A stretch of DNA of 64,000 nt from Branchiostoma floridae. Its lineage: Eukaryota > Chordata > Leptocardii > Amphioxiformes > Branchiostomatidae. The position numbers were made by a program, and so were the translations under genes. Under the pieces are notes generated by a model. That model saw only the letters and a program-made list of their open reading frames with translations. It ran no database searches and was not told where the DNA came from. Within the stretch, counting starts at the first letter, position 1; every line of letters starts with the position of its first letter. The stretch covers positions 9,725,244 through 9,789,243 of the forward strand of contig NC_049986.1 of assembly GCF_000003815.2 (NCBI RefSeq), written 5' to 3'. Positions 1 to 51,912 of the stretch are shown here, piece after piece.

Positions 1-168
1 AGAACGGAAACTAAGAAATGTATAATGAAATAAATGTAACTGAAACAGACACATAGGGTAATATAGTAAATGATACAACATATAAATCTATCAATATCAT
101 TAATCCTTAAAAAATCGTTATTGGCTGATAAGTTGTGCAGGTTAGGTATGTATGTGAAAAGGGCCTAC

Positions 169-354
169 GTGCACACTGCAGCTGGAACTGCTGCGGCCGC
201 CACTGTCCTTTCCAACAGACCAGTGTATTGAGACCCTTGCATTTTTGGAAGCCTGGAAGACACCTGTATGTACAAGTATCAAGATGGCTGAGACCAGTTG
301 GGCTTCCAAAAGCAATGACCGAGCCTGGGTTTGGTGCTGGTGGCCATGGACAAG
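169..354 (-). CDS. Sushi (CCP/SCR) domain exon
   Basis: A 186-bp phase 1-1 exon after a pyrimidine-rich TTTCATCTAG acceptor. It encodes CPWPPAPNPGSV, then TCTYRCLPGF, TLVCWKGQW and QLQC. The four cysteines and the conserved Trp before the last Cys match the sushi/complement control protein fold, at about 60 residues as expected. Sushi domains bind proteins or glycans in complement and other extracellular proteins. A phase-1 donor (CAC/GTAGGC) at the left end shows that more exons follow outside the window. Confidence 0.75.
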
Positions 355-13694: not shown

Positions 13695-13763
13695 CTGAAA
13701 AAAAGATGGACTTAGTTTAATACGCCAAAAATTCCAAATCCTCACGTGTATTAAGATGGTTCC

Positions 13764-13865
13764 AACTAGAGGTGGGTACCGGTACAGCAATTGAGGTACA
13801 GGTACGGTGACGGTCAAGGTCCAGAAGATCAGATTCAGCAAGAAAAACTGGGTCCGACAAGAAAA
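13764..13865. repeat. Half of a hAT-like MITE
   Basis: The motif AGAGGTGGGTACCGGTAC followed by a GGTCCAGAAGATCA-like stretch matches one end of the elements at 35928 and 40012. No matching second end was seen, so it is a truncated copy. Confidence 0.45.
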
Positions 13866-14227
13866 CCGACTAGTTCAGACATATATCTTCACCCTACAGT
13901 ACAGCTGTTTTCCTCTTACCTTCTGACACAATGATGTTAACAGAGATGTAGCATCCTAAAAAGGTTCCATGTCATTTGGTGTTATTTGGTGTTTCTTTTG
14001 GCTGGAATAGAAGCCTATCATCAACATGATTATGGTGACATACTCTATATACAATTGATTTAGTCTGAAACATTACAACATGGCAAGTCTTTGCTAAAAG
14101 TGACTATAACCTAGACCTAATACTCATCGCAGAAATCGTGCAAGTGATGAAGAAACAAACTGTCTTTTCAGGTCAAAACTACTGGTGGTAGGATCTGGTT
14201 AGACAGTCAGGAGACGATTCATTTTAT

Positions 14228-24975: not shown

Positions 24976-26925
24976 GCTCTTTCTTTCTTTCTTTCTTTAT
25001 TGACGATGAGACATGTCATTACAAGGGTCTGCCTAGGCAGCTTTGGGCTGGTAGCGGCAGAACCTACAAAATACGGACGAACATACAAAGAAGTCATACA
25101 ATATAATACAATAAAATAATCAATGATTAAAAGGTGTCATGCAACTATACAGATTGATCTATACCATTTGTCAGCTAACTTAAAAGATTGGAGTAGGTGG
25201 AAGGTCAGTATACTATCATACGGGTTTAATATTAAAATCCTGACAGGAGGTGGCTTCTGCAACGGGCTTTGAACTGTGGGAAAGTGGTGGAGTCGGTGAT
25301 GTGGTTTGGTAGGTTGTTCCACAGTCTGGAGGTATATGGAATAAAGCTGTTGCTGTATGTTGTAGTTCTGCAGCGAGGGATATGGAGGTGTGAAGAGTTT
25401 CGCAGACGAAGCTGGGTTTGGGTTTGTCTTGTTTGAGGGATGAGTGGTTGCAGGTGGGGTGGTACAGTGCCGGTAACCAGTTTGTACATGATGACTAGAC
25501 GGTGATAGTCTCGCCTAGTTGAGAGCCTGTCCCATCCAAGCTCTTGAAGCACGTCCGAGTAGGGTGTTCTTGGCGCTGCACCTGTAACTAGGCGGCCTGC
25601 ATGGTACTGTACGCGCTCTAGTACTTTGGAGGCGGCTACACTCATGTTGGTGAAGAGGATGGAGGCATACTCCAGCCTAGGTCGCACAAGGGTAAGGTAA
25701 GCCAGTTCCAGTGCTTCCTTGGACAACTTGCCTCGCAACCTCCAGAGGTATCCAAGTACCTTTCTGGCCTTACTGGAAGTATTCTGTGCGTGGTCGTTCC
25801 AGCCCAAAGCCTGGTGTAAGGTGACACCAAGATGCGAGTAGAAGGGAACCTGTTCGATGAGCTGGCCTGAGATGTAGATAGGAGGAAGTACAACTCTGCT
25901 TCGTGCAGACTTGATGCAAATAACCTTGCACTTCCCTGGATGCAGTTCTAGACCCCAGACATCAAACCAGTCAGAAACAAGCTGTAAGTCGGAGTTAGTG
26001 GTGCTGGCTACCTGCTCGGCCGTCGGTCCCGAGTTTGACAAAGACGTGTCATCAGCAAAACTGTTGATGTCCGATGTACAAGGTAAGTCCTTGATGTCGT
26101 TTATGTAGACTAAGAATAACAGCGGGCCAAGGATACTGCCCTGTGGGACGCCCGCGTACGTGTACCTCCAAGACGACGTAGCACCATTAATGACCACACG
26201 CTGCTGGCGGCCTGTGAGGTAGTGATTAAACCAGCTGATGAGTGGTCCACTAACTCCGTAACGCGATAGCTTGTACGTTAATCCATCGTGCCACACAGTA
26301 TCGAACGCTCTACGGACGTCCAGAAAGACGGCGGCCGTACAGGAGACATTGGAGTCATCAATGGACTTGGCCCAGTTGTCAACCAATCGCAGGAGTTGTA
26401 GGACTGTCCCATCCCCTTTTTTGAAACCAGACTGGTTGACGTTTAACAGATTGTTGACGGTAAGATAAGTGTACAGGCGGTTGTGAACGACTCTCTCCAA
26501 CACTTTGGCTACGGTGGGCAGAAGTGCGATCGGTCTGTAGTTTGATGGATCAGTCCGATCACCCTTTTTGTATATTGCCGACACGTTTGATTGCTTCCAG
26601 TCTTTTGGTATTTGTCCTGTAGCGAGTGACAAGTTGAAAAGCTGACAAAGGGAGGCGCTGATGGCTGGTGCTCCCTCCTTAAGGAGTCGGTTGGTTATTC
26701 CATCGGGGCCTGGAGCCTTGTTAGGATGTAATCCTTGCAGCACACCCAGGACTTCTTCCTCTGAGACGTGAATTGTAGAGAGTACTTCATCAGTGAACTT
26801 AGGGAGCCTGCTTGTAAAGTTTGGATGCGTAGCTTCCTTAGTGACTCTGACAAAGACGTCATTAAGGGTTTCTGCCTTATCTTTGTTTTTGTCCAGGACG
26901 ATGCCATTTACGGAGAGTGCTCGTG
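24976..26925 (-). mobile_element. 5'-truncated CR1/L2-like LINE with intact reverse transcriptase frame
   Basis: A long minus-strand frame (26743-25232, extending in frame back to about 26925) encodes a non-LTR reverse transcriptase. Visible motifs are NKAPGPDGI, NYRPIALLPTVAKVLE, GVPQGSILGPLLFLVYIND and FADDTSL (the YADD-type catalytic box). The C-terminal part carries RLEYASILF and LWNNLPNHI, typical of CR1/L2-clade ORF2. The endonuclease region is missing, so the copy is dead on arrival. The 3' end is marked by an (AAAG)n run at 24979-24997. It lies antisense in the first intron of the plus-strand gene. Confidence 0.85.
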
Positions 26926-26929
26926 GTCA

Positions 26930-29511: not shown

Positions 29512-29572
29512 ATGGAAAAGAAACTCCTGTTGTGCCTTGTGCTTCTCGCCATACCAGTGGCGACAGCGCAAG
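29512..29572 (+). CDS. Signal peptide exon, locus copy 1
   Basis: A long T-run and CCAG acceptor precede the ATG, which encodes MEKKLLLCLVLLAIPVATAQ, a textbook secretion signal with likely cleavage after ATA. It is 61 bp, phase 1 end at CAAG/GTTTGT. The paralogous exon at 49020 encodes MEKKLLLCLVLLSISVAKAQ. Confidence 0.85.
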
Positions 29573-32500
29573 GTTTGTCTTATAATTTTCTTGTAGGAAA
29601 CATATGAATATTAGTGACTTTTTGAGAAATGGAAGTGTTAAACACACACGCGCATGCATACGTACGCGATGGTTAATGGTTAAAGTTGATTCTACATGGG
29701 TGTTGCAGAAAGCAAAGTAAAAAGAAATACGCGATTGGAAGAAAGGTATATGGCTCCGAGGGTGTGGATGATATATGAGAAAACACACATAAGGGCAGTT
29801 TGACTAAGGGTTTGACAAAATTAGTTTGCTTCATTTTACACAAGCCGACACATGCTAGCCTTTTGCGTCAATGAGTCGACATGTTCTGGACTTACGTGGA
29901 GCCTCAGAGGGGGTAATTTTTTCGTAAAGGTGAGAAGTAATGCGCGCGGCGGATGGCATCCATAAAATCAAGTTTGTGTGGCTTGACGGCGAAATGAGTC
30001 ATTCGAAAATGACTGAATCTACAATAACCGCTGCCCTAACAAAGACCAGGATGTGACTGAAAATGATTATAAGAACAAAGAGTGATTAAATACTAATATC
30101 TGATAAGATACTAATATCATGTCGCAGACTGCGCTGCTGGATACCAGGAGATTGACGGAAGTTGCTACTACTTCTCCAAAGTGGCCAAAAACTCCCGCCA
30201 GGCCATAGCCACGTGCGAGGCCTCGGGGGGCGAACTGCTCGAAGTTGACGACGACGCTACGAGGGCCATCATCGACAACTATGCCTCGCGTTGCGTGTAT
30301 GTCATCCATTGACAACTTATATCTATATCCAACACATAACTTAGTACTGTGTGTATCCCAATCTCCGAGCAGATCCGGATATCACAATTGTGTTGTTTTT
30401 TGCAAATTTTGGATTTTCAGGTTTTAAGTGAAAAGTTAGGTACTGTAGTAGAAAACAGGTAAGAACTGTAATTGTTATGTTGCAAAAACAGTCGTAAAAC
30501 ACTGAAATGAGACAATCTTAAGCTTCTAGATATGTTTATCCATAGTATATTTTTTCCTATAGTCAATTTCTTTATATCCAAATACAATCATCTACTCATA
30601 TTGGCGACACCCTAGGGGCGAGCCAAATGGTATATAATTGTGTTCAGTTAAAAAAACTCTAGGTATTGTGCCGGAATATTTCCACAGGAATGATAGTAAT
30701 CAACATGCATCTTTGGTATGTAAGTCCCTCAGAAATAGGAATGCTAATAGTCCACGTGTAGTTTGGTATGTAAGTCATTCAAAAGATCTATACAGGATGT
30801 GCTGATATCTCGGTAATCATGAGAAATGCAATGGTGGAAAGTGGCTCATGCTGTATAGTAGTAGTCATGTTGGCTCCCTGGACTGGAGGTATTTGTCATA
30901 GAAAAATAGTCCTAGATAGGGAAAGCCATATAACATAGTTAGACAGGAAGTGTTACATATGAAGGTCATAATAATTTTGAATAATGGCAAATGGTAATTA
31001 TATTCTGAGCGAAATGTATTTTTATGGCATATATCACACACTGGTATACGCACTCACACAATAATGCATAATCATGTGTAACATGTAAAACATAAAATTT
31101 ATTATGTCATACCTGTGACGCGAAAACGTTCGATACGGGTGTTCCGGTGTGACAGCGTTCTCGCCCCCCCCGTGATCTTGCCCCCCCGGGGGCGAAATCA
31201 CTAGCGATCTCGCCCCCCCGGGGCGAAATCACTAGCGATCTCGCCCTCCCCGGCTAGTGATCTCGCCCCCCTACCTCGCCCCCCTTTAGCGATTTCGCCC
31301 CCCCCCCAAAAAAAAACGGGTTTACATGACATTTTAGAAGTTGATTGGTATAAATCACACAATGTAGTTTCAGAATGATATAAGTACACGAGTTTGATAC
31401 ATAACTCCATTCATAGTATCAATATTAACGTAATTACATGGTAATAAGATAGTTGAACTTGTTTCAGACAAGGAGGGTTTGGTCCCTTGTATTCCCATTA
31501 TTGCATATACCTGAGTCTTGACATAAGATGTATTTCATTGTATTCACCTGTCCTCAAGCAACCTATATATCTCCAATATGAAGTCTCTACAATGAAGTGA
31601 CCACAAAAGAACTATGTAATGTCTTTATTAATTATGCAAATATTAGGTATTAATTAGAATAACGCACATTTTGGTATATGCACCTGGCCAAGGGATATCT
31701 TCACCTCCAACATGACTGTCTTTTCTAGTATTTAGGAACTGATGCATTTACCCGTGTTTCTTAAGACAGGTATTTTACCAGTGTTTGTGTAGCATTTAGC
31801 AACAGCTATATCAACTTGCGCGTAGATAGTGTTTATAATGAGAAACTATTATTCACGTGTGTTTTTGTTAGTGCTTTGGAAATGTTTCCAGCACAAGAAA
31901 GAAAACACTGTGACAAATTGAAAACATATAGCTGACGTATTCCGTACCATAGACGGTGTTGATTTATACGTTCGCAGTAGCACTGTTTTATGCCACCTCA
32001 GCTGCAAAAATTGTCTTTTTTCATTTCAATGTCATGTTTGCACCGAACAATATAATATTGACTTTCGAGGTATGACATCTTACGGTAATAAGGTGCCATA
32101 TAGGTACCAGGTAACACACCATATACGTTACTCCCCAGGTGCAGTATAGTACCAGGTTGCGCACCTGTAATATGTAGTAGCCAGCTGCTCTGGGAGGGGG
32201 GGGGGCGAAAACGCTAAAGGGGGGCGAAAACGCTAGTGATCTCGCCCCCCGGGGGGGGCGAGATCGCCGGGGGGGCGAGATCGCTGTCACACCGGACCGG
32301 GCCGTACGTTTTCGTATCGCACAGGTTCGAAAGGCGTATCACACAGGCTCCATTCGAATAAATCGAACTGTTTCGAGCGGGCCGAATACGGCACTTCGAA
32401 GCAATTCGAATACCTGATTCGGACGCTGTTGCAACACTTTTTGTTCGAGGGCCCCAAATTTGTTCAACTTCTGGCGCATTTTGCATCAAAACATGGGTTT

Positions 32501-33213
32501 TCTCAGGTGGGTATGACATAAATGAAATACAACACATTTAAAGGTATTTTTAATGTAGTTTGTAGTTCCGAAAATAAGGACTATCTGCACGAAGAAAAGT
32601 TGCCAATGTCGGATAATTGCACATTAAAACATCCAAGGAAATGGGAGGAATTGTGCAAAGTCTACCTGATAGTATTAAATATACAACTTTCATTACTTGC
32701 TCAATTTGTACATCACGTTTGGCTGACTGACTTTTCTAATACAAAAGCTCCAGGGAGAGTGTATGACCCAAATTCCTCCCAGTAACATTCCTCAGGTCTA
32801 ACATCTAACATTCCAAACATGCCTGTGGACTAGCATTCTTGTGGATACATTCCTAGAATTCTTGCAAATTGAGCACAACCCCTACAACACCCAACGTCGC
32901 CATGGAAATGTATTTTGTCATATAGCATTGCCAATCTTGTTTTCCTTTCTTTTCTAGGTACTGGATCAGCGCTGAATCGGCACTAGTTGACTACTGGCAG
33001 AGTGCAGAGTTAGAACCAATGTTCAATACTTGCAATTTCCAATTAATTCAGTTACTACCTTCACCATGAGGATTATGTTATCGGCAGCACTTCTGTGTGT
33101 GTGTGTGTGTGAGTGAGTGTGTTTGTATGTGTGTTGTGTGCGTGTTGTGTGTTTGTGTGTGTGTGTTGTGTGCGTGTTGTGTGTTTGTGTGTGTGATGTG
33201 TTTGTGTGTGTTT

Positions 33214-33256
<43 letters not shown>

Positions 33257-36200
33257 GTGCGGTGTGTGTGTGTGGTGTGTGCATGTATGTGTAGAAGACC
33301 AACATAGCTTTAGAAGGTAAGGTTGAATTGGGTTTACATTTAGTATGTGAATAGGTCTTCATTGGACCTCAAAATGACTAGATTTTGTGCCCCTTGTATT
33401 GAATGTATTTCTGTTCCATTTGTTTAGCTGGATATGTATATCTGCCACATTATTTTTCAGTAAGGAATTCAAGTTTATTTGCAAAGCATCTACAAGTGAG
33501 GAACCTACACGTGAAACACCTACACGCGAAACACCTACACGTGAAACACCAGGTGAAACACCTACACGTGAAACACCACATGAAACACCTTCAGAGGAAA
33601 CACCACGTGAAACACCTTCGCCTGAAGATGATGAAGCTATAGGTGAAGAACCTACTACTCCAGACTTTGCAAAATTGTAGACAAGATTTCTCAATGTTTT
33701 CCCCCCTTGCCTTCCCTAATAAAAACGCAATTAATACTTTTAAATCTGAATAGTATTTATGCACAAGTATCACGCCTGACTGGGTGTAAATATCATTTTC
33801 TTTTAGACAAAAAAAAAACACTGGAGGAAGAACTATATATGTACAATCATATTGTTTGTTGTTCACGGTTGTGGGTGGGCGATGATTAACGTCCGCAGGC
33901 AGTGATGACAGACTGGGAATGATCCCGAAACTTTTCGCTTGTCTGGTAATAATTACCTCCATGAAAAATGGAGGTATAGTTTTTGGTGCGTCTATCCCTG
34001 TGTGTGTCTGTATGTGTGTTTGTGTTTCCGGATATTTGTGGTCACCATAGCTTTAAACATCTCGATGGATTGTAAGAATATTTGGTATGTGGGTAGGTGT
34101 TGGAAAGATGAAGGTCAGGGTCGATTTTGGGCTCCCTGGTGTGTGACTTTGGTACTGCAGCAGAACGTCTTTTTTACCTGGACATGCTATGATTTTGATT
34201 TATTGGTGGCAGATAGCTTGTAAGGAAGAAGTTTATTTATTTAAGTGATGTATGTTTGGGCCCCCTAGCAGCTTGTTCTGGAACTGCAGGGGCAATTTTA
34301 TCAAAATCTTCAAAGGAGCATAACAAGTATAGGAATTATGAATTTCCATGATATTTAGCATGCAGGTATCTTTGGCAGAGCTGTGCATAATGAGGTGCAA
34401 ATTATGCAAATTTGGACCTAATTTGCATACTTAATGAGAAAAATCGACATTTACAGTGTTTTCCATTATAGGACTCAAATACCTGTAACATATGTAGTTT
34501 GTGGTAGGTGGAATATTAGCAAATATCAATCAATACCCCTAATTTGCATGATATGGCATAAATTGATGTGAAAGTGTTCTAATTCATCTAAGTACATGTA
34601 GTAAATGATTGGATTGTCAACATTGTGTAAGTTGCTTAAAGGAGTGCATAACCAAGCATAAATCATGCAGATGTAGAAATCATTTGTATAATCAGAATAT
34701 TTCATGGAGGTATGAGGTATCCAAACTCTTGTTGAGCTAGGACTGGTCAAGGAGACGCGTGTTATCTTGTTTAAAACATGAATAAACATAGTATATTTCC
34801 ACCAACAAATTCTTAGATATATTACAACAAGAGATGTATACGAAATCACTATGGCGACGGATTATGCAACATCATGTGCGTATGGTTTCTTTATGCGCCC
34901 CTATTTCCCTGGAAAGGTGTAGAGAAAAACCTGAACAGGATTGAACAAGGGGCTACCGTAATTATAGTTGTTCCTACTTGCCAGAAATAGCGCTTTCATT
35001 TTCTTCCCCAAACCCCCACTGCCAAAGACTATCATTAAAAGTTAGAAAAAAATGTAGTAGGGAATACATTTGTGCAATTTTAGAATACGTTCAGAGCAAT
35101 CGTAAATTGTAAAAAAAAAATACCCCGCTCCAAAGGTGTTGCCAAAAATTATCAACAATAAGTTGACTGAACAAATACCAAATGCTTGGATTTCTAGTTA
35201 TTCCTGACAAATCACTGGTTTGTTTTGTTTTCAGCCTGGCCACCGTTTAGAAACTTGAAAAACAATTATCCCGATTCTACCCTCAGCGGGGATGATATCG
35301 TAGAACAGGAGGGTTTGGATGCCTGGCTGAAGGGCAAGGTAGACAACTCCTGTGCTATACGTGCTAGCTATGCCATCACTAAAAGTGGTAAGTAATAAAA
35401 GTTTAGATACACACAATAGGTTGGGAATACTTACTGTTCATTAGTCTGGTGAAAAAGTGGTTGTATTATGCAATATCAGAAATTCTTGCTCTGGGAGTCT
35501 TACTGTGGCCTCCTTCGGTCAATATTGTACACAGTTTATGTACATGTACCAAGAACCTCTTGCAGTCTACATTACATACTATTTCATGTAATCAATTGAT
35601 GAAGGCTACTTAGTATTTCCTTGGCTATTTTGTCTTACTGGGTGAGGTATAGGACTGTGTACTACCCAATTCTGTACCTGTAAAATATATCATGAACATG
35701 TAGTTCAAGTAATGGTCTGGGCCTGAACACCTAGTGTACAATACCTCTGTCTAAACAAATAAACGGACATCATTAGTGGACATCACTTTTTAAGACTTGG
35801 TAAATTTATCTCAAAGAGGACAATTTTGATAATTTGCCAGATTTGTTTTGAGACACAAATTTGTAAATGTCAGTGAAAAGATGACAATTAACTCCTTAAA
35901 AGACAGAAGGGGTACATGCATGTATACTAGGGGTGGGTATCGGTAAAGAAAATTCAGGTCCAGGCATAATCCAGGTCCAGAGGATCATGTCTAGCTGGAC
36001 CTAAATATCTGTGAAAACTTATGAATTGACGATACTCAAAACAATGGTACATTTCGCAACAAATGATTCTGTTTGACAAAGTTTGACGTTAGAAGCTTGG
36101 TAAAAATGACTATCAACTCTCCTCTACCTCGCTCTTTGACCTGTATTAGCCACACAAGTGCCGATGTAGGCTGTTCATTTTCGAGTCGGTCCAACATCCA

Positions 36201-39200
36201 CTATTTTTTTTTAGGTCCCGTTTAACTTGACCGGTAGGCGGTAAAAAAAACGGTTTTGAACTGCCATACCGTACCAGTACCCACCTCTAATGATTACAAT
36301 TTACAGATAATGATTCATAATTGTGTGCATGTAGGTCCAGAGCCAGATCTGGATCAATATGTAAAGCATGTACATGTATACTGTACCTGTACCTTTGTTT
36401 TTTAATCTAACATAATATAGGTTATTTGTACACAGCCGAAGTAAGGAGGTTCAAAATATTGACGGAAAGACACAATCTACCTACTAAATATGGTATGAAA
36501 TGATAGAAGAAATAATTTTAAAAACTTTAGGAATGACAATGGAGGTGCCAGATGAATGCAGAGAAAACTGGGCTGGAGTGAGGGACAGGAACAGGAATCC
36601 ATACTTCATTCGTGTTGCAACTATGTGCTGCTACCTGCAGGAGACCATAGGTGACCCAGCCATCACTGGAAAGAATCAGGCGGACTATGCGGTAAAGAGC
36701 AAGACAATAACATATGTCTTAATTAGAGAAACAAGCTGCTGGTCTAAGTATCACTGACGAGAGACATCGGATGGTGTCTGAAGCATCTGACCTTTTTCCA
36801 AAATCATATCGTAATGGATATGTTTTTGAAACGGTCAGACGTTTCGGATAGAATCCACTATCCTTCGTCAGTGACACTGAAGAGATCTGGAAGAAACAGG
36901 TCTTTTATACTCTAACTATGAATGAAGACAATTTCAGATGTCCAATAGGAAAGGTTGTAAGACAATTCAGACTGAAGACAATTTGGATTCCAAAGAAACG
37001 TCTGACCGTTTCAAAACCATATCCAGTTGCTTGAGTAACTATTTTTGGCGTATCTTATTACCTGGATGTCTAACCTACATCGACATATCGTAATGTTTGA
37101 GTAACTGCTATTTGGAGTACCTTATTACCTGGATGCCTTCAACAACGCAAATCATGCTCATTGGCAAAAATTGTCATTTCAGTGTCAGCATGGAAATAAT
37201 ACAACTGTTATAGCTATTTTTCAAATGTTCTCCTTACAGATCCATTAAGAGGCCATTAGACTAGTAGGTGAATGATGAATTGATCTAAACCTGGTACATT
37301 GTAATGACAAGAAAATGACAAAACCTGAGATTGTACTATTAAATAAGCTAAAAACTTGAAGGCAATAAGGCTATGACTTAATAATTGCTTGCATTATAGT
37401 GTTATGTATTATGCAAAGCAATACCATATATGAATGACAATAAAGCACAACGTAGCTCCTCCCTAGATCCACCTCAGCTACATTGTCTCACATATATGGT
37501 CCTATATGGTATTTCTCAACAGGGCCACCAGGGAATCATTGTATTCAAGGACTGTGACTTCGAGACTGCTACCGGACATGTGGACCTGTGGGATGGTGCA
37601 GATTGCTGTGGTCAATGCTACTTTGATAAGTGCGATGACATCAGGCTTTACAAATGTGAAGAAGATACAGATGAAACATCTACAAACGAAACACCTACAG
37701 AGGAAGATGCTGAAGATGATGACGCTATAGGTGAAGAACCTACTACTCCAGACTTTGCAAAATTGTAGACAAGATTTCTCAATGTTTTCCCCCTTGTCTT
37801 CCCTAATAAAAACGCAATTAATACTTTTAAATCTGAATAGTATTTATGCACAAGTATCACGCCTGACTGGGTGTAAATATCATTTTCTTTTAGACAAAAA
37901 AAAAACACTGGAGGAAGAACTATATATGTACAATCGTATTGTTTGTTGTCACGGTTGTGGGTGGGCGATGATTAACGTCCGCAGGCAGTGATGACAGACA
38001 GGGAATGATCCCGAAACTTTTCGCTTGTCTGGTAATAATTACCTCCATGAAAAATGGAGGTATAGTTTTTGGTGCGTCTATCTCTGTGTGTGTCTGTATG
38101 TGTGTTTGTGTTTCCGGATATTTGTGGTCACCATAGCTTTAAACATCTCGATGGATTGTAAGAATATTTGGTATGTAGGCAGGTGTTGGAAAGATGAAGG
38201 TCAGGGTCGATTTTGGGCTCCCTGGTGTGTGACTTTGGTACTGCAGCAGAACGTCTTTTTTACCTGGACATGCTATGATTTTGATTTATTGGTGGCAGAT
38301 AGCTTGTAAGGAAGAAGTTTATTTATTTAAGTGATGTATGTTTGGGCCCCCTAGCAGCTTGTTCTGGAACTGCAGGGGAAATTTTATCAAAATCTTCAAA
38401 GGAGCATAACAAGTATAGGAATTATGAATTTCCATGATATTTAGCATGCAGGTATCTTTGGCAGAGCTGTGCATAATGAGGTGCAAATTATGAAAATTTG
38501 GACTTAATTTGCATACTTAATGAGAAAAATCGACATTTACAGTGTTTTCCATTATAGGACTCATATACCTGTAACATATGTAGTTTGTGGTAGGTGGAAT
38601 ATTAGCAAATATCAATCAATACCCCTAATTTGCATGATATGGCATAAATTGATGTGAAAGTGTTCTAATTCATCTAAGTACATGTAGTAAATGATTGGAT
38701 TGTCAACATTGTGTAAGTTGCTTAAAGGAGTGCATAACCAAGCATAAATTATACAGATGTAGAAATCATTTGTATAATCAGAATATTTCATGGAGGTATG
38801 AGGTATCCAAACTCTTGTTGAGCTAGGACTGGTCAAGGAGACGCGTGTTATCTTGTTTAAAACATGAATAAACATAGCCTATTTCCACCAACAAATTCTT
38901 AGATATATTACAACAAGAGATGTATACGAAATCACTATGGCGACGGATTATGCAACATCATGTGCGTATGGTTTCTTTATGCGCCCCTATTTCCCTGGAA
39001 AGGTGTAGAGAAAAACCTGAACAGGATTGAACAAGGGGCTACCGTAATTATAGTTGTTCCTACTTGCCAGAAATAGCGCTTGCATTTTCTTCCCCAAACC
39101 CCCACTGCCAAAAACTATCATTAAAAGTTAGAAAAAATGTAGTAGGGAATACATCTGTGCAATTTTAGAATACGTTCAGAGCAATCGTAAATTGTAAAAA

Positions 39201-42200
39201 AAAATACCCCGCTCCAAAGGTGTTGCCAAAAATTATCAACAATAAGTTGACTGAACAAATACCAAATGCTTGGATTTCTAGTTATTCCTGACAAATCACT
39301 GGTTTGTTTTGTTTTCAGCCTGGCCACCGTTTAGAAACTTGAAAAACAATTATCCCGATTCTACCCTCAGCGGGGATGATATCGTAGAACAGGAGGGTTT
39401 GGATGCCTGGCTGAAGGGCAAGGTAGACAACTCCTGTGCTATACGTGCTAGCTATGCCATCACTAAAAGTGGTAAGTAATAAAAGTTTAGATACACACAA
39501 TAGGTTGGGAATACTTACTGTTCATTAGTCTGGTGAAAAAGTGGTTGTATTATGCAATATCAGAAATTCTTGCTCTGGGAGTCTTACTGTGGCCTCCTTC
39601 GGTCAATATTGTACACAGTTTATGTACATGTACCAAGAACCTCTTGCAGTCTACATTACATACTATTTCATGTAATCAATTGATGAAGGCTACTTAGTAT
39701 TTCCTTGGCTATTTTGTCTTACTGGGTGAGGTATAGGACTGTGTACTACCCAATTCTGTACCTGTAAAATATATCATGAACATGTAGTTCAAGTAATGGT
39801 CTGGGCCTGAACACCTAGTGTACAATACCTCTGTCTAAACAAATAAACGGACATCATTAGTGGACATCACTTTTTAAGACTTGGTAAATTTATCTCAAAG
39901 AGGACAATTTTGATAATTTGCCAGATTTGTTTTGAGACACAAATTTGTAAATGTCAGTGAAAAGATGACAATTAACTCCTTAAAAGACAGAAGGGGTACA
40001 TGCATGTATACTAGGGGTGGGTATCGGTAAAGAAAATTCAGGTCCATTTATAATCCAGGTCCAGAGGATCATGTCTAGCTGGACCTAAATATCTGTGAAA
40101 ACTTATGAATTGACGATACTCAAAACAATGGTCCATTTCGCAACAAATGATTCTGTTTGACAAAGTTTGACGTTAGAAGCTTGGTAAAAATGACTATCAA
40201 CTCTCCTCTACCTCGCTCTTTGACCTGTATTAGCCACACAAGTGCTGATGTAGGCTGTTCATTTTCGAGTCGGTCCAACATCCACTAATTTTTTTTAGGT
40301 CCCATTTAACTTGACCGGTAGGCGGTAAAAAAACGGTTTTGAACTGCCATACCGTACCAGTACCCACCTCTAATGATAACAATTTACAGATAATGATTCA
40401 TAATTGTATGCATGTAGGTCCAGAGCCAGATCTGGATCAATATGTAAAGCATGTACATGTATACTGTACCTGTACCTGTGTTTTTTAATCTAACATAATA
40501 AGTTATTTGTACACAGCCGAAGTAAGGAGGTTCAAAATATTGACGGAAAGACACAATCTACCTACTAAATATGGTATGAAATGATAGAAGAAATAATTTT
40601 AAAAACTTTAGGAATGACAATGGAGGTGCCAGATGAATGCAGAGAAAACTGGGCTGGAGTGAGGGACAGGAACAGGAATCCATACTTCATTCGTGTTGCA
40701 ACTATGTGCTGCTACCTGCAGGAGACCATAGGTGACCCAGCCATCACTGGAAAGAATCAGGCGGACTATGCGGTAAAGAGCAAGACAATAACATATGTCT
40801 TAATTAGAGAAACAAGCTGCTGGTCTAAGTATCACTGACGAGAGACATCGGATGGTGTCTGAAGCATCTGACCTTTTTCCAAAATCATATCGTAATGGAT
40901 ATGTTTTTGAAACGGTCAGACGTTTCGGATAGAATCCACTATCCTTCGTCAGTGACACTGAAGAGATCTGGAAGAAACAGGTCTTTTATACTCTAACTAT
41001 GAATGAAGACAATTTCAGATGTCCAATAGGAAAGGTTGTAAGACAATTCAGACTGAAGACAATTTGGATTCCAAAGAAACGTCTGACCGTTTCAAAACCA
41101 TATCCAGTTGCTTGAGTAACTATTTTTGGCGTATCTTATTACCTGGATGTCTAACCTACATCGACATATCGTAATGTTTGAGTAACTGCTATTTGGAGTA
41201 CCTTATTACCTGGATGCCTTCAACAACGCAAATCATGCTCATTGGCAAAAATTGTCATTTCAGTGTCAGCATGGAAATAATACAACTGTTATAGCTATTT
41301 TTCAAAGGTCTCCTTACAGATCCATTAAGAGGCCATTAGACTAGTAGGTGAATGATGAATTGATCTAAACCTGGTACATTGTAATTACAAGAAAATGACA
41401 AAACCTGAGATTGTACTAATAAATAAGCTAAAAACTTGAAGGCAATAAGGCTATGACTTAATAATTGCTTGCATTATAGTGTTATGTATTATGCAAAGCA
41501 ATACCATATATGAATGACAATAAAGCACAACGTAGCTCCTCCCTAGATCCACCTCAGCTACATTGTCTCACATATATGGTCCTATATGGTATTTCTCAAC
41601 AGGGCCACCAGGGAATCATTGTATTCAAGGACTGTGACTTCGAGACTGCTACCGGACATGTGGACCTGTGGGATGGTGCAGATTGCTGTGGTCAATGCTA
41701 CTTTGATAAGTGCGATGACATCAGGCTTTACAAATGTGAAGAAGATACAGATGAAACATCTACAAACGAAACACCTACAGAGGAAGATGCTGAAGTTGAT
41801 GGCGCTATAGGTGAAGAACTTACTGCTCCAGAATGTAGATAACTTTTATCTATTGCTTTTCCCTTTGAACGCCAGACAAGGACACTCGGCACCTATTTTA
41901 TAGGATGCCTCACATTTACCACGGCAAGCAAAGCTAAAATCTGTGTATAAAATCCTTGGAATGTCTCAAATATTTTGTGTACCAAGTTGAGGACATCCTA
42001 TTCCAGTTCAGTATTAGCCAAACCTGCCTATAGGTGCGGTCACCTCTTTATCCTGGTCATCCGTCGTAGAAATTTCTATAATAACAAAAGTTGTGATACA
42101 AATATGACAATGGCGACAGATTATGTAATCTAAAACATTATGTGCTTATGGTCTCTTCAGCTATGTGTCCTTCTTACTCTGGAAAGGTGAAACCAAACCC

Positions 42201-43968
42201 TCTAAAGTGAACAGCTATAATGTTGTTCTTACTTGCGATAGAATTTCAAGCATTGATCATCGTTCCATAAAATCATCATGTTTATCTTCATCGACATTGT
42301 CGTTCTACCTGGCCAAGATCATTTTCCACCCGAAAACTACACTGCTGAAGGCTACCTTAAAACGCTTTTCTTGGGAATAAACGTAACATTCTTTAAATAT
42401 TTTCAGAGATTGTAAACATAAAACAATATGCCTCTGTCCCCACGCAAGGCAAATACCGCACAAATACCAAAATGCCAGCATGTTTGGTCATTCCTCATGA
42501 ATCACAGTTTTTGTTTTTCAGAATGGCCAGCCTTTAGAGACTTGAAAGGCAATTATCCCCCTCCTGCCCTCACTTGGGATAATATCGTAGATCGGGAGGG
42601 TTTGGATGCCTGGCTGAAAAATCTGGCAAACAAAAACACTTGTGCAATGCGTGTCAGCTACGCCATTACTAAGAGTGGTAAGTAATTAAAGTTTAGATAT
42701 TTGTAACTACAATTTGCATGTACTTTCACAGTTGACTGGGAATGCAACAATTAATTTGTCTGGTGACCTTCATGTAGTCTTGCACCATCAGGAATTCCTA
42801 GCCTAGTGCCCAGCCTTGTTAGCTTTGGTCCGCTCCCAACTGTCAACCCGTCCAGAGCAGACAAAAGATAACAAGTCTAGACACTAGGCTAAAAAATCCT
42901 ACATTTGAAATTCTTGTTGCAGACTAAAATACTAGCTATCATGTACCTCTTTCAATCGACATGCGACATCTTTGATAGCACATATTCATGCCAAGCTTCC
43001 TGAAAAAAATTTAACGATTCATTGATTACATTACATGGTCATGGATAATGCCAACTTCCTTGGCCATGTCCCCTATTAACACCTATAGTATACATTTTGT
43101 AAATCAGTTGGGGACACACAATTTGAATACCCAAAGACATTATGCATTCAATCAATGTCTTTAATCTACCTACAAAATGATAACTGCATAACACAATTTT
43201 CCCGACTGTTTTAGGAATGACAATGGAGGTGCCAGATGAATGCAGAGAAAACTGGGCTGGAGTGAGGGACAGGAACAGGAATCCATACTTCATCCGTGTT
43301 GCAACTATGTGCTGCTACCTGCAGGAGACCATAGGTGCCCCAGCCATCACTGGAAAGAATCAGGCGGACTATGCGGTAAAGATCAATCCAATTACATATG
43401 TCTTTATTAGAGAAACAAGCTAATGGTCCAAATATCACTGACTGAAGATGTCGGATGGTGTCTCAAGCATCTGACCTTTTCCAAAATCATATCATAATGT
43501 TTGAGTAACTGCTATTTGGCGTATCTCATTACCTGGATGTCTAACCTTCATTGACACAAATCATATTAGTTAGAGATACGCTGCTCATTGGCAAAAATCA
43601 TCATTTCAATATCAGCAAGAAAAAACACAACAGCAATAATATGTTTTCCATACAGATCCATTAAAGAGGCTAATAGGCTTGTAGGTGAATGATGAATTGA
43701 TACAGAACTGAACAGGAGCAGATAAATGCCAAGAAATACTGGATATTATATTAAAAAATTATATTAATGACAATAAATCAAAATGTGAATGAATATTGTA
43801 GTAATATTATATGGTATCTCTCAACAGGGCCACCAGGGAATCATTGTATTCAAGGACTGTGACTTCGAGACTGCTACCGGACATGTGGACCTGTGGGATG
43901 GTGCAGATTGCTGTGGTCAATGCTACTTTGATAAGTGCAAGGACATCAGTCTTTACAAATGTGAATAG
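29512..43968 (+). CDS. Secreted CTLD protein with three Tae4-like amidase domains (locus copy 1)
   Basis: Proposed coding exons: 29512-29572 (signal), 30128-30296, 32958-33008 and 33461-33642 (CTLD plus Thr/Glu/Pro linker), 35235-35387, 36531-36691 and 37523-37730 (amidase 1), 39319-39471, 40612-40772 and 41603-41810 (amidase 2), 42522-42677, 43215-43375 and 43828-43968 (amidase 3, stop TAG). All junction phases match (1, 2, 2, 1, then 1-0-1 per amidase unit). The product would be exported, using the lectin part for recognition and the Cys/His amidase domains to cut peptidoglycan stem peptides. Stops at 33680, 37768 and 41842 lie in frame just beyond the proposed linker donors, so shorter products ending after the CTLD, amidase 1 or amidase 2 are equally possible. 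Joining all units in one transcript is inference. A polyadenylation signal AATAAA lies at 45885. Confidence 0.6.
30128..33680 (+). CDS. Short CTLD with Thr/Glu/Pro-repeat tail (exons 2-4)
   Basis: Exon 30128-30296 encodes DCAAGYQEIDGSCYYFSK and GGELLEVDDDATRAI. Exon 32958-33008 encodes YWISAESALVDYWQSA. Exon 33461 onward encodes KEFKFICKAST, then about seven repeats of ETPTR or similar, then GEEPTTPDFAKL and TAG at 33680. A phase-1 donor (CTATAG/GTGAAG) after 33642 would instead join the amidase exon at 35235; another (ACCAG/GTGAAA) is at 33551. The CTLD has the N-terminal disulfide and terminal Phe-Ile-Cys but lacks WND and EPN/QPD motifs. AATAAAA at 33719 could serve the short form. The acidic Thr-rich tail looks like an O-glycosylated stalk. 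Confidence 0.75.
31110..32335. mobile_element. GC-rich foldback transposon-like element
   Basis: The left arm (CCTGTGACGCGAAAACGTTC, CCGGTGTGACAGCG, then units of CGATCTCGCCCCCC and GGGGCGAAATCACTAG) is matched in reverse at the right (GGGGCGAAAACGCTAG, GGCGAGATCGCTGTCACACC, then GTACGTTTTCGTATCGCACA). The interior of about 850 bp is AT-rich and noncoding. Arms built from short GC-rich subrepeats are typical of foldback elements. It lies in the intron between the first two CTLD exons of copy 1 and is absent from copy 2. Confidence 0.65.
33090..33295. repeat. TG-rich microsatellite
   Basis: Runs of GT interspersed with GTTGTGTGCGT and TTGTGTG units, ending in GCGCGCGCG. Open frames on both strands here are artefacts of the repeat. 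Confidence 0.9.
33954..34712. mobile_element. CTCCATGAAA MITE-like element in amidase unit 1
   Basis: It begins TACCTCCATGAAAAATGGAG, a hairpin, and ends TTTCATGGAGGTA. The interior holds GTGTGTCTGTATGTGTGTTT and no coding frame with splice sites. A near-identical copy, carried by the tandem duplication, is at 38040-38798. Confidence 0.6.
35235..37768 (+). CDS. Tae4-like amidase domain, unit 1 (three exons)
   Basis: Exon 35235-35387 encodes WPPFRNLKNNYPD and NSCAIRASYAITKSG, with the presumed catalytic Cys at 35351-35353. Exon 36531-36691 encodes RNRNPYFIRVATMCCYLQE and ITGKNQADYA. Exon 37523 onward encodes GHQGIIVFKDCDFETATGHV, then DLWDG, with the catalytic His at 37577-37579, and then a Cys-rich end. 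Cys-to-His spacing is 84 residues and total length about 150, close to the bacterial Tae4 family, whose members cut the gamma-D-glutamyl-mDAP bond of peptidoglycan. Extra cysteines near the end (DCCGQCYFDKC) suit an extracellular enzyme. The last exon reads on through TNETPTEEDAEDDDAIG to TAG at 37768, or splices at 37730 into unit 2. It has no start of its own, so it depends on the upstream signal/CTLD exons. Confidence 0.8.
35928..36289. mobile_element. hAT-like MITE in amidase unit 1
   Basis: Ends TAGGGGTGGGTATCGGTA and TACCAGTACCCACCTCTA are inverted repeats resembling hAT termini. The flanking 8-mers ATGTATAC and ATGATTAC match at 6 of 8 positions, as expected for an old hAT target-site duplication. 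It is noncoding. A copy carried by the tandem duplication is at 40012-40372. Confidence 0.6.
36810..37025 (-). ncRNA. Hammerhead-like ribozyme motif in a repeat, amidase unit 1
   Basis: On the minus strand (36871-36841) CTGACGA is followed by A, then a perfect six-pair stem GGATAG-TGGATT-CTATCC, then GAAAC. That is the CUGANGA / stem II / GAAA arrangement of hammerhead ribozymes, apart from one extra A. AAACG and CGTTT can form a short stem III. Stem I is not convincing. The flanks (GAAACGTCTGACCGTTTC) recur inverted at about 37000. Such motifs are known from Penelope-like retroelements. A second copy is at 52181. Confidence 0.45.
38040..38798. mobile_element. CTCCATGAAA MITE-like element in amidase unit 2
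   Basis: A copy of the 33954-34712 element carried by the 4.08-kb duplication, with a handful of substitutions. Confidence 0.6.
39319..41842 (+). CDS. Tae4-like amidase domain, unit 2 (three exons)
   Basis: Exons 39319-39471, 40612-40772 and 41603-41810 (or to TAA at 41842). The first two exons encode the same residues as unit 1. The catalytic Cys codon is at 39435-39437 and the His codon at 41657-41659. Differences appear only near the end: DAEVDGAIGEELTAPECR replaces DAEDDDAIGEEPTTPDFAKL. A phase-1 donor (CTATAG/GTGAAG) at 41810 could join unit 3. If this unit is a separate gene it lacks any visible signal exon or promoter, so splicing from upstream seems necessary. Confidence 0.75.
40012..40372. 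mobile_element. hAT-like MITE in amidase unit 2
   Basis: A duplicate of 35928-36289 with the same inverted ends and interior. Confidence 0.6.
40891..41105 (-). ncRNA. Hammerhead-like ribozyme motif, amidase unit 2
   Basis: The core at 40952-40922 is identical to the unit 1 motif, including the GGATAG/CTATCC stem. It was carried along by the tandem duplication and is therefore not independent evidence. Confidence 0.4.
42522..43968 (+). CDS. Tae4-like amidase domain, unit 3 (three exons)
   Basis: Exons 42522-42677 (WPAFRDLKGNYPPPALTWDN, then NTCAMRVSYAITKSG, Cys codon 42641-42643), 43215-43375 (near-identical to the other units apart from GAPAI for GDPAI) and 43828-43968 (ATGHVDLWDG, His codon 43882-43884, ending ISLYKCE then TAG). 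Exon lengths are 156, 161 and 141 bp with the same phases 1, 1-0 and 0 as units 1 and 2. The introns are short and unlike those of the other units, so this is the older, diverged copy. It ends cleanly without the acidic linker, consistent with being the last domain. The first exon differs most (about 70 percent residue identity by eye). Confidence 0.8.
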
Positions 43969-49019: not shown

Positions 49020-49329
49020 ATGGAAAAGAAACTCCTTCTGTGCCTTGTGCTCCTCAGCATATCAGTGGCGAAAGCACAATGTATGTCTTTTGAGTTAAGG
49101 AATTCTTGTAGAAAATATGTAAATATTGATAATGTGATCCCTACTTTTCACTAAAGTAATACAATGCACCCAAACATGTTTTAATGAAGTAATTGATACT
49201 ATAAGATATCAATTGAAAGTCGTCTGGAGTGGACACACACACGCGCGCGCGCGGGCACACACACACACATACAGCAAAGTATTTCCCACTAAAATGAACG
49301 AATCTACAGTAACCGCTGTATTAACACGG

Positions 49330-49379
<50 letters not shown>

Positions 49380-51126
49380 ACACACACGCACACACAGATG
49401 TACAGCAAAATGTTTCCTACTAAAAATAAAGTAACCGCTCTACTAACATGGACCAGGATATGAATGAAAACGATCATGATAAAAAAAAAAAATACTAATA
49501 TCATTATGCAGACGTCGACTGCCCTGCTGGGTACCAGGAGATTGACGGAAGTTGCTACTACTTCTCCAAAGTGGCCAAAAACTCCCGCCAGGCCATAGCC
49601 ACGTGCGAGGCCCAGGGTGGTGAGCTGCTCGAAGTTGACGACGACGCTACAAGGGCCATCATCGACAATTATGCCTCGCGTTGCGTGTATGTCATCCATA
49701 AACAACTTCTATCTATCTTTATAGATGACAAATAATTATTGATCATACACACAACTGGGCGCTTGTAGTCTAGTCTTCAAACAGATGCAAGGCATGCGGC
49801 TAATGCCTAGGTCACATTTCCAAACCGAGTAGCTTTTGGGAACGAAAACTATGATATGAAAGACACCAAAATACACAAACGCATAAAAGGAGAGCCGCGG
49901 GCATGCTTTGTGTTTATTTCTAGGTATACGTCTTTAGTTTTTGCTTCCTAAAACAGCCCAGCCGGACCTCACTTTGGAAATGTGACGTTTAATAGTCGAA
50001 GAGGTTTCTTCCAATTTTAGCAAAATTTGGTAGTAACGTTAGAGTCTGCCACCTTCTCACAAAAGACTCACCAGTGTCTACTAAAGAAAATCTAAAAATA
50101 CAAGTGCCCCACAAAGGACCCAAAAATGAAACAAATCGTTGGAACATGTTGGAACAATAACAAAAACACATAGATGTTTGAAAATTGTTCTAAATAAAGA
50201 GATTATACCATTACTTTACCAACTGTTCCAACAAATATAATTAGGTTCAAACATGTTCAAACTTTCGTTTTTAACTGTTTGAGCAATTTAGAACTGTAGC
50301 GACTGAAATATTCTTTTACTCAAAATGGTTCAAACGTATTACAAATATTATTCAAAATCCCTCTCGGTGACTCGGAATGGACTCTACTACACTTTTCCTT
50401 GTAGGAGGCGAACTGTTAGGCCGTATCTCACTGAAGATGCGCCACAATGGCGGCCTCGCTGCATCCTCAATTGGATTTCTGTTTGACTTTTAAAAGGGAA
50501 TATCATGCAAAAGTACAAGTATACAACCCACTTTGGAAAGCAGTTAAATGTTATGTTCTAAAAAAAAAAATACCAATACTGTTGCTAAAAACGGGATGGT
50601 GTAAACACTGAACAATGTACATCTGCTGGTAGATTATGTGTATTTATGGTATTCCTATTTCATTTCTTTATATTTCAATTCAAACATCATTTTTTTTCTC
50701 ATTATTTTGTTACAGGTACTGGATCAGTGCAGAGTCTCAGCTGATTGACTACTGGCAGAACGAAAAGTTTGAGTTCAATTTTACAGCAAATTCTTTTTCT
50801 TTTTTTATTGTGTTTCATTGTTTAGCTGCATATTTCGCTAGTTCACCTTTATTCGCATGGTAACCTATATCCGTTGTTTTAAACATTATGTAGTTTTAGA
50901 GATATCAAGTGGAAAGATGGTGGTTTAAAACAGCAGTATTTTAAAAACAAAATTGTAATCTGAAACCGCTGTCCCTCGACACTAAATGCCATGTTTAAAA
51001 CAACAGAGATAGGTTACTCATGCTCGGATAAAGGTGAACTAGCTTTATCTTTACTAAAACATTACCTTTTTTGCAGGAAAGAATTCAAGTTCATCTGCCA
51101 TGCAAATCCAGCCGCTAGCGAGGAAG
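49020..51126 (+). CDS. Secreted short-CTLD protein, locus copy 2
   Basis: Exons 49020-49080 (signal, MEKKLLLCLVLLSISVAKAQ), 49512-49686 (VDCPAGYQEIDGSCYYF, GGELLEVDDDATRAI), 50716-50766 (YWISAESQLIDYWQNEK) and 51077-51126 (KEFKFICHANPAASEE). Lengths and phases equal those of copy 1, with two extra codons before the first Cys. The CTLD lacks the calcium/sugar-binding long loop. After the last exon the reading frame meets TAG in GGTTAG unless that GT is used as a donor. No amidase exon with a usable frame follows, so this copy probably makes a lectin-only secreted protein. A (CA)n tract and a MITE lie in its introns. Confidence 0.7.
49235..49400. repeat. CA microsatellites
   Basis: Two CA-rich tracts, 49232-49272 (with CGCGCG) and 49330-49398, separated by a unit containing ACAGCAAA and TTTCC that also recurs right after the second tract. 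Confidence 0.9.
50837..51043. mobile_element. MITE with inverted ends of about 54 bp
   Basis: The left arm GCTAGTTCACCTTTATTCGC, followed by GGTAACCTATATCCGTTGTT, is matched in reverse at 50990-51043 (AACAACAGAGATAGGTTACT, then GGATAAAGGTGAACTAGC). It lies in the intron between the second and third CTLD exons of copy 2. Solo ends of the same family occur at about 29292-29345 and 54338-54420. Confidence 0.65.
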
Positions 51127-51600: not shown

Positions 51601-51735
51601 CACCATAGGATCATGGTACTCAAGGTCTGTGATTGTGAAAATCCTACCAGGCATTTGGACACATGAATGACACCGGATACTGCGCACTACTAGTATGCTA
51701 TTTCGATAGATGCCAAGACCTTAAAGCTTCATAAA
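51601..51735 (+). pseudogene. Broken last exon of a Tae4-like amidase, locus copy 2
   Basis: After a TCTTGACAG acceptor the sequence parallels the third amidase exon of copy 1 (CACCA.AGGRATCATKGTA, then CAAGG, and later TGCTATTTCGATA.ATGCCA), but it is degraded. The glycine before the catalytic-position His (51652-51654) is replaced by Arg, the Asp-Leu-Trp motif is lost, and TGA follows at 51664-51666. The first two amidase exons are absent between 51126 and 51601. Its phase-0 start does not fit the phase-1 end of the preceding exon. It cannot encode an active domain. Confidence 0.75.
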
Positions 51736-51912
51736 TGGTGAATAGATGCAAAATGACAGGATAATATTAGATTGCTAATAACAGTAAATCAGGCTACCAT
51801 GCATTAATGCAAAATGTACTACTACTACTACTAATTAATTACTATTAACTATAAGATATTGTTAGATTCCATAGGAGTGACTTATGTAGTAGCCATCCTT
51901 TTAGCATGTGCT

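What the first reader, a model, noticed from the sequence alone, without database searches (positions are those of the whole stretch)
29512..43968. Signal peptide plus minimal C-type lectin domain joined to bacterial-type Tae4 amidase domains
Seen: signal exon, CTLD exons and three sets of exons with NSCAIRASY / RNPYFIRVATM / GIIVF...ATGHVDLWDG, all in compatible phases. Known: Tae4 is a type VI secretion effector that cleaves peptidoglycan peptides, and transferred amidase effectors ('dae' genes) have been described in several eukaryote lineages. Inference: here the enzyme is secreted and carries a lectin-like targeting module, making a lectin-guided bacteriolytic protein.
Basis: partly seen in the sequence, partly recalled or inferred. 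Interest (0 to 1): 0.95.

Follow-up and report, generated by a model that had tools for sequence, protein, structure and literature searches.

The report
Secreted bacterial-type amidase beside mini-lectin gene
An animal genome carries intact, intron-containing copies of a bacterial wall-cutting enzyme directly behind a small secreted lectin-like gene; the enzyme copies look real and probably secreted, but whether lectin and enzyme are made as one protein is still open.

Summary
The exons exist at the stated coordinates, and the amidase is a true Tae4 (Pfam PF14113, 75-78 bits, cut-off 27). Copies A, B and C keep Cys, His and an Asp two residues after His, the triad type published for Serratia and Agrobacterium Tae4. 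The same genome (513 Mb) holds four more copies; two have all three domain exons with an animal-type leader exon upstream, and no CTLD was found around them. So this is a domesticated, probably secreted Tae4 family.

The claimed join is weak. The leader exon joins either CTLD or amidase in frame, but CTLD exons 1 and 2 do not join the amidase in frame, and the CTLD gene has its own terminal exon with stop and polyadenylation signal. A fusion needs a splice donor inside that exon; candidates exist. A second CTLD gene downstream ends in a phase-1 donor followed by a decayed amidase exon 3, which favours an ancestral CTLD-amidase gene. The mini-CTLD lacks long loop and sugar motifs, so lectin guidance is unsupported. 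RNA evidence is needed.

The parts
29512..29572 (+). Leader (signal) exon MEKKLLLCLVLLAIPVATAQ, phase-1 donor
   Evidence: highest hydropathy of 7 plus-strand candidates in the window scan
30128..30296 (+). Mini-CTLD exon 1 of gene 1 (phase 1 in, phase 2 out)
32958..33008 (+). Mini-CTLD exon 2 of gene 1 (donor weak, score -2.6)
   Evidence: aligned with gene 2
33461..33680 (+). Terminal exon of gene 1: end of CTLD, Thr/Pro/Glu-rich tail, stop; holds possible internal phase-1 donors at 33496, 33553, 33643
   Evidence: AATAAA at 33718
35235..35387 (+). Amidase A exon 1 (catalytic Cys)
36531..36691 (+). Amidase A exon 2
37523..37768 (+). Amidase A exon 3 (catalytic His and Asp) with acidic tail and stop
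39319..39471 (+). Amidase B exon 1, identical to A in the codons compared
40612..40772 (+). Amidase B exon 2, identical to A in the codons compared
41603..41842 (+). Amidase B exon 3 with a differing tail end and stop
42522..42677 (+). Amidase C exon 1
43215..43375 (+). Amidase C exon 2
43828..43968 (+). Amidase C exon 3, no tail
33577..41832 (+). 4.1 kb tandem duplication (33577-37752 and 37668-41832, 98.5% identical) that made A and B
49020..49080 (+). Leader exon of gene 2
49512..49686 (+). Mini-CTLD exon 1 of gene 2
50716..50766 (+). Mini-CTLD exon 2 of gene 2
51077..51126 (+). Mini-CTLD exon 3 of gene 2, ending in a phase-1 donor (score 4.4)
51601..51742 (+). Decayed amidase exon 3 with in-frame stops
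   Evidence: 60 bp at 75%, E 4.9e-8, and a weaker collinear piece, E 0.045

Best explanation
A Tae4 peptidoglycan amidase of bacterial type was taken into an animal genome, gained introns and a secretory leader, and spread to at least four loci. At this locus the amidase cassettes A, B and C lie behind a leader exon and a mini-CTLD module. Leader, CTLD module (as kept in gene 2) and amidase all meet at phase-1 introns, so the CTLD most likely entered the leader-amidase intron by exon shuffling, giving a leader-CTLD-amidase gene of which gene 2 keeps a relic. Today the locus most likely makes a secreted mini-CTLD protein with an acidic tail and, from the downstream cassettes, a secreted amidase that cuts peptidoglycan stem peptides by Cys-His-Asp chemistry. 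Shown: homology, triad residues, exon borders, phases, relatives with leaders, the relic. Inferred: secretion of A-C, enzyme activity, antibacterial role, bacterial origin, the shuffling history. Unknown: which upstream exon supplies the leader of A-C, and whether CTLD and amidase still share one chain.
For: PF14113 E 9.8e-21 and 1.1e-21; PDB Tae4 matches. Triad of the Serratia/Agrobacterium type (passages): Cys, His and Asp at His+2 in 23 of 24 aligned rows, 5 of 5 own-genome rows among them. Copies on C3 and C15 with a phase-1 leader exon and the same intron phases. No CTLD match in 15.5 kb (C3), 17.5 kb (C15) and 15.5 kb (C18) fetched; one chance-level tail match, E 0.82. A and C against C3 and C15a: Ka 0.24-0.51, Ks 1.5 to saturated. 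Gene 2: phase-1 donor of score 4.4, reached by 0.8% of 3980 window GTs, and an amidase exon 3 relic 475 bp further on. In the genome search for this CTLD the two window genes match at 94 and 90%, matches outside the window at 46% or less (73 matches; 150 of 252 candidates scored); both window genes lie just upstream of amidase sequence. The tails of gene 1 and of B are homologous (75.6% over 90 bp).
Against: No transcript was seen. Gene 1 lacks a donor at the place of gene 2's donor and ends in its own stop with AATAAA. No leader exon was found in the 679 bp before C even at relaxed limits, while A and B have a candidate leader of their own at 33919 and 38005. Constraint on exon 1 between A and C is not significant (Fisher p 0.15). 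The relic could belong to a separate lost amidase copy. No bacterial sister is resolved in the tree.
Confidence: 0.6

Rival explanations
1. One reading: leader, mini-CTLD and amidase are spliced today into one secreted lectin-amidase, by use of a donor inside the terminal exon of gene 1.
For: Three possible phase-1 donors (scores 3.8, 3.4, 2.0) give open frames into A; 1.8% of 3980 window GTs reach 3.4; gene 2 has a real-looking donor close to the homologous place.
Against: The same exon is a full terminal exon with stop and AATAAA; repeat-like coding with GT in one phase makes in-phase donors cheap; no RNA.
Confidence: 0.3
2. Separate neighbouring genes: CTLD gene 1 on its own, and amidase genes with leaders of their own; closeness is a by-product of tandem duplication in a defence-gene cluster.
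For: C3 and C15 amidases have leaders of their own and no CTLD found near; candidate leader MIPKLFACLVIITS at 33919 and 38005.
Against: That candidate is absent before C; both window CTLD genes sit upstream of amidase sequence; CTLD and amidase tails are homologous.
Confidence: 0.25
3. A-C are silent leftovers without a leader.
For: No leader found before C; a sister unit has decayed; C18 and the second C15 copy lack a findable exon 2; A-C constraint in exon 1 not significant.
Against: Open frames and splice sites are kept in A, B and C, with only a whole-codon length change between A and C in exon 1.
Confidence: 0.1

Closest known systems
Tae4 amidase effectors of type VI secretion (Pfam PF14113), Serratia/Agrobacterium triad type
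   Same: Same family by profile; Cys, His and Asp two residues after His
   Different: Three-exon animal gene; 25-33% identity to the bacterial hits
dae genes (domesticated amidase effectors), such as tick Dae2
   Same: Amidase effector taken from bacteria and used as an animal antibacterial; Dae2 passages read in PMC7962413
   Different: Dae2 belongs to another Tae family (recalled). Tae4-type dae genes of animals are recalled from Chou et al. 2015, which is not held
HGT-chimeras of arthropods (PMC13389597; abstract and passages)
   Same: Animal module beside a transferred domain; one shrimp case joins a predicted amidase domain to a receptor-like part in a predicted extracellular protein
   Different: There, 36 of 41 tested chimeras were seen as contiguous mRNA; here the join is not shown, and the partner is a mini-CTLD
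C-type lectin domains (Pfam PF00059)
   Same: First half of the domain with its cysteines, and the final FIC strand
   Different: About 85 residues, long loop and sugar motifs missing, under the Pfam cut-off

Membership tests
Tae4 (PF14113) | profile score above the curated cut-off | tested here: met
   74.6 (A) and 77.7 (C) bits against 27
Tae4 (PF14113) | Cys-His-Asp catalytic triad | tested here: met
   Cys, His, Asp at His+2 in 5 of 5 three-exon own-genome copies; Gly at the Enterobacter/Salmonella Asp position, as the Serratia/Agrobacterium type allows
Tae4 (PF14113) | peptidoglycan amidase activity | not testable with these tools
   needs an enzyme assay
T6SS effector | lies with an immunity gene or secretion-system genes | not tested
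   not searched for in the window; for contrast the Rhizobium etli homolog lies among T6SS genes
dae4 (domesticated Tae4) | eukaryotic gene with introns | tested here: met
   three exons with conserved phases in A, B, C, C3 and C15a; two further copies lack a findable exon 2
dae4 (domesticated Tae4) | bacterial origin shown by phylogeny | tested here: inconclusive
   own-genome rows form one clade, 95/100, beside 19 bacterial rows; no bacterial sister resolved
dae4 (domesticated Tae4) | secretory leader | tested here: inconclusive
   leader-like exons by hydropathy scan at C3 and C15; for A-C only a phase-compatible upstream leader
C-type lectin (PF00059) | profile score above the curated cut-off | tested here: not met
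   14.7 and 16.5 bits against 22.6
C-type lectin (PF00059) | long loop with EPN/QPD and WND calcium-sugar motifs | tested here: not met
   absent from both spliced proteins; no conserved extra exon between exons 2 and 3 in the comparison of both genes; motifs recalled
HGT-chimera | transferred and animal parts in one open reading frame and one mRNA | tested here: inconclusive
   in-frame joins possible from internal donors; no RNA available

The most novel reading that the evidence does not exclude
An animal defence gene that splices a transferred Tae4 amidase behind a secretory leader and a mini-CTLD module bounded by phase-1 introns, with three tandem amidase cassettes that can be chosen or chained through donors in their acidic tails, so that one leader yields a lectin-like protein, a free amidase, a lectin-amidase or a multi-amidase.
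Probability: 0.25. Interest if true: 0.8.

Novelty: new variant of a known kind. Interest (0 to 1): 0.55.

Why it matters
Transferred amidases are known weapons of ticks and other hosts, but how animals rewire them is little known. Here the intron phases, a leader that fits two modules in frame, plain relatives on other chromosomes and a decayed composite copy seem to record the steps from a bare secreted enzyme to a module-shuffled gene, and one RNA experiment can test the fusion.

Tried and rejected
Rejected: direct join of CTLD exon 1 or 2 to the amidase (stops). Loss of the active site because the Enterobacter-type Asp is missing (the other published triad type fits). A shared coding leader in the block conserved upstream of A and C (34820-34919 and 42077-42189): length differences of 7 and 4 bases shift the frame. 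Bacterial contamination: the amidase has introns, lies on a long contig and has relatives with the same intron phases on three other contigs.

Led nowhere: viral contigs, 12 pattern matches and no relative. Protein query in 398 Pseudomonadota genomes: 0 matches, but G001, which holds a Tae4, was silent too, so it shows nothing. GFP family as a lancelet marker: 0 matches, and nothing rang in the controls; lancelet (Branchiostoma floridae) is my recall from genome size alone and the empty marker does not help it, so the species is not confirmed; the word lancelet in scripts is only a label. Papers on a CTLD-Tae4 join: none recognised in the listings of searches; the library lacks most subscription journals. 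The first tree had 9 rows and the second read ten minus-strand loci in the wrong direction; only one search is used. There, three rows were dropped as identical (L068, L069, L071), and row L070 is misread by my script, which is the one miss of 24; it stays in the tree as a long branch. No structure was predicted: a spliced protein is not read letter for letter from contiguous DNA, as that tool asks.

Full report
What is there. Each amidase set has three exons with GT-AG borders: A 35235-35387, 36531-36691, 37523-37768; B 39319-39471, 40612-40772, 41603-41842; C 42522-42677, 43215-43375, 43828-43968. Each set is entered in phase 1 and its inner introns are of phase 1 and 0. The signal exon 29512-29572 ends in phase 1.

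Identity of the amidase. Spliced A and C match Pfam PF14113 with 74.6 and 77.7 bits against a cut-off of 27, and solved Tae4 chains: five for A, E 1.2e-14 to 1.5e-6, six for C, E 1.5e-13 to 0.024. No NCBIfam model matched A, and C gave one chance-level hit. The Asp of the Enterobacter/Salmonella triad is Gly here, and in Salmonella Tae4 its mutation abolished the growth effect (PMC3695027, passages). But Serratia and Agrobacterium Tae4 take their Asp from the position two after His (PMC6277958, passages), and the window copies have GHVDLW with Asp there; it aligns with the Asp of Agrobacterium Tae4. Cys, His and this Asp are kept in 23 of 24 rows of my alignment: 5 of 5 own-genome rows and 18 of 19 bacterial rows, the miss being a row that my script misread.

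The wider family. The window lies on contig C8 of a genome of 513 Mb in 431 contigs. The amidase query gave 19 exon matches: 9 in this window, 5 on C15, 3 on C3, 2 on C18. C3 and the first C15 copy have all three exons with the same phases and, upstream, a leader-like exon of phase 1 (MLKTTVWFVAVLFACVW and MMKTTLWFVAVLFACVW). The second C15 copy and C18 have exons 1 and 3 but no findable exon 2 and no clear leader. No CTLD match lies in the 15.5 kb (C3), 17.5 kb (C15) and 15.5 kb (C18) fetched, which reach 12.7, 11.4 and 7.9 kb upstream of the first amidase exon; one tail-like match was at chance level, E 0.82. The five three-exon rows form one clade, support 95/100; no bacterial sister is resolved. 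A and C against C3 and C15a give Ka 0.24-0.51 with Ks from 1.5 to saturated. Between A and C, exon 1 differs (Ka 0.214, Ks 0.407), while exon 2 differs by one silent and one replacement change and exon 3 by three replacement changes, which points to gene conversion; A and B are identical in the domain codons compared. The A-C contrast in exon 1 is not significant (p 0.15).

The CTLD gene. Gene 1 is the leader plus 30128-30296, 32958-33008 and 33461-33680: a complete 166-residue frame, about 85 residues of mini-CTLD and a Thr/Pro/Glu-rich tail, with AATAAA 38 bases after the stop. The CTLD scores under Pfam's cut-off and covers only the first half of the profile; gene 2 also gave a sub-threshold match to the UL45 lectin-like family, 23.4 bits against 27. 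PDB matches up to E 1 are 91 sequences, among the 60 shown mostly C-type lectin-like proteins, with some clearly unrelated ones by short stretches. EPN, QPD and WND are absent. The donor of exon 2 is weak in both genes (scores -2.6 and -3.2), so the border of exons 2 and 3 is my least certain one.

Can they join? CTLD exon 1 or 2 to amidase exon 1 gives stops. Leader to amidase is in frame for A, B and C. The terminal exon of gene 1 holds GT sites of phase 1 at 33496 (score 3.8), 33553 (3.4) and 33643 (2.0), all giving open frames into A; 1.8% of 3980 plus-strand GTs of the window reach 3.4 and 4.7% reach 2.0. The tail site recurs in A (37731) and B (41811), so that even a 654-residue leader-CTLD-A-B-C frame is open. 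This is possibility, not evidence of use.

History. A second CTLD gene (49020-51126) has the same exons, but its exon 3 ends in a good phase-1 donor (4.4), and a decayed amidase exon 3 follows 475 bp on, at 51601-51742 (60 bp at 75%, E 4.9e-8; a second collinear piece, E 0.045). No trace of exons 1 or 2 was found between 51127 and 64000. In the genome-wide CTLD search (73 matches; 150 of 252 candidates scored) the two window genes stand at 94 and 90% identity and matches outside the window at 46% or less. So both close members of this subfamily lie just upstream of amidase sequence in the same orientation. A module with phase 1 on both sides, placed in a phase-1 leader intron, is the textbook layout of exon shuffling (general knowledge). 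The gene 1 tail and the B tail are homologous outside the recent duplication (75.6% over 90 bp), while C, C3 and C15 have no such tail: the CTLD and amidase frames seem to have exchanged ends at least once. I therefore think that a leader-CTLD-amidase gene existed here (inference), and leave open whether it is still made.

Caveats. A and B come from a 4.1 kb tandem duplication at 98.5%; in a very polymorphic animal that is within allelic distance (general knowledge), so an assembly artefact is possible. No leader candidate lies before C (679 bp), whereas A and B have one at 33919 and 38005. The species is not confirmed.

Known kinds. Tick Dae2 is an amidase effector acquired from bacteria and delivered in saliva (PMC7962413, passages); transfer of Tae genes to eukaryotes is mentioned in PMC5303276 (one passage). 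Tae4-type dae genes of animals are recalled from Chou et al. 2015, not held. Chimeras of transferred and animal sequence are described for arthropods, with an amidase-receptor case in shrimp (PMC13389597, abstract and passages). Hence: new variant of a known kind.

Noticed in passing
window 13188-13874, minus strand: Another CTLD-like exon (40-42% identical to the mini-CTLDs) with a nearby signal-like frame MEGRCFLLLLFLVVPALTDD; its exon frame alone matched no Pfam family.
   Followed up: partly
window 25235-26926, minus strand: Open reverse transcriptase frame of 564 residues (Pfam RVT_1, E 5.9e-35), probably a LINE.
   Followed up: no
window 7457-7822 and 9192-9524, minus strand: Two long cysteine-rich frames that look alike by eye; no Pfam family.
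   Followed up: partly
window 2006-2398 and 4748-5104, minus strand: Two frames with a shared pattern by eye (KDKWVLTYQES and NDVWVLQYTDS, then LLEDFDP and LLQDFDP), perhaps a duplicated gene; no Pfam family.
   Followed up: partly
window 110-451, minus strand: Sushi repeat above the Pfam cut-off (23.9 bits against 20.7).
   Followed up: no
window 36526-36816 against 43210-43499, and 37503-37660 against 43808-43965: Exons 2 and 3 of copies A and C are almost identical while exon 1 is not: a sign of local gene conversion.
   Followed up: partly
window 34820-34919 and 42077-42189: A block conserved between the upstream regions of A and C (72.6%) that is not a shared coding frame; regulatory or repeat origin unknown.
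   Followed up: partly
window 36747-36878 and 40828-40959: The second amidase introns of A and B match each other in reverse here (71.6%), so the stretch is an inverted repeat, perhaps a small transposon.
   Followed up: no
C15:4832110-4833400 and C18:8488441-8492434 of the same genome: Amidase copies with exons 1 and 3 but no findable exon 2 and no convincing leader; possible pseudogenes.
   Followed up: partly
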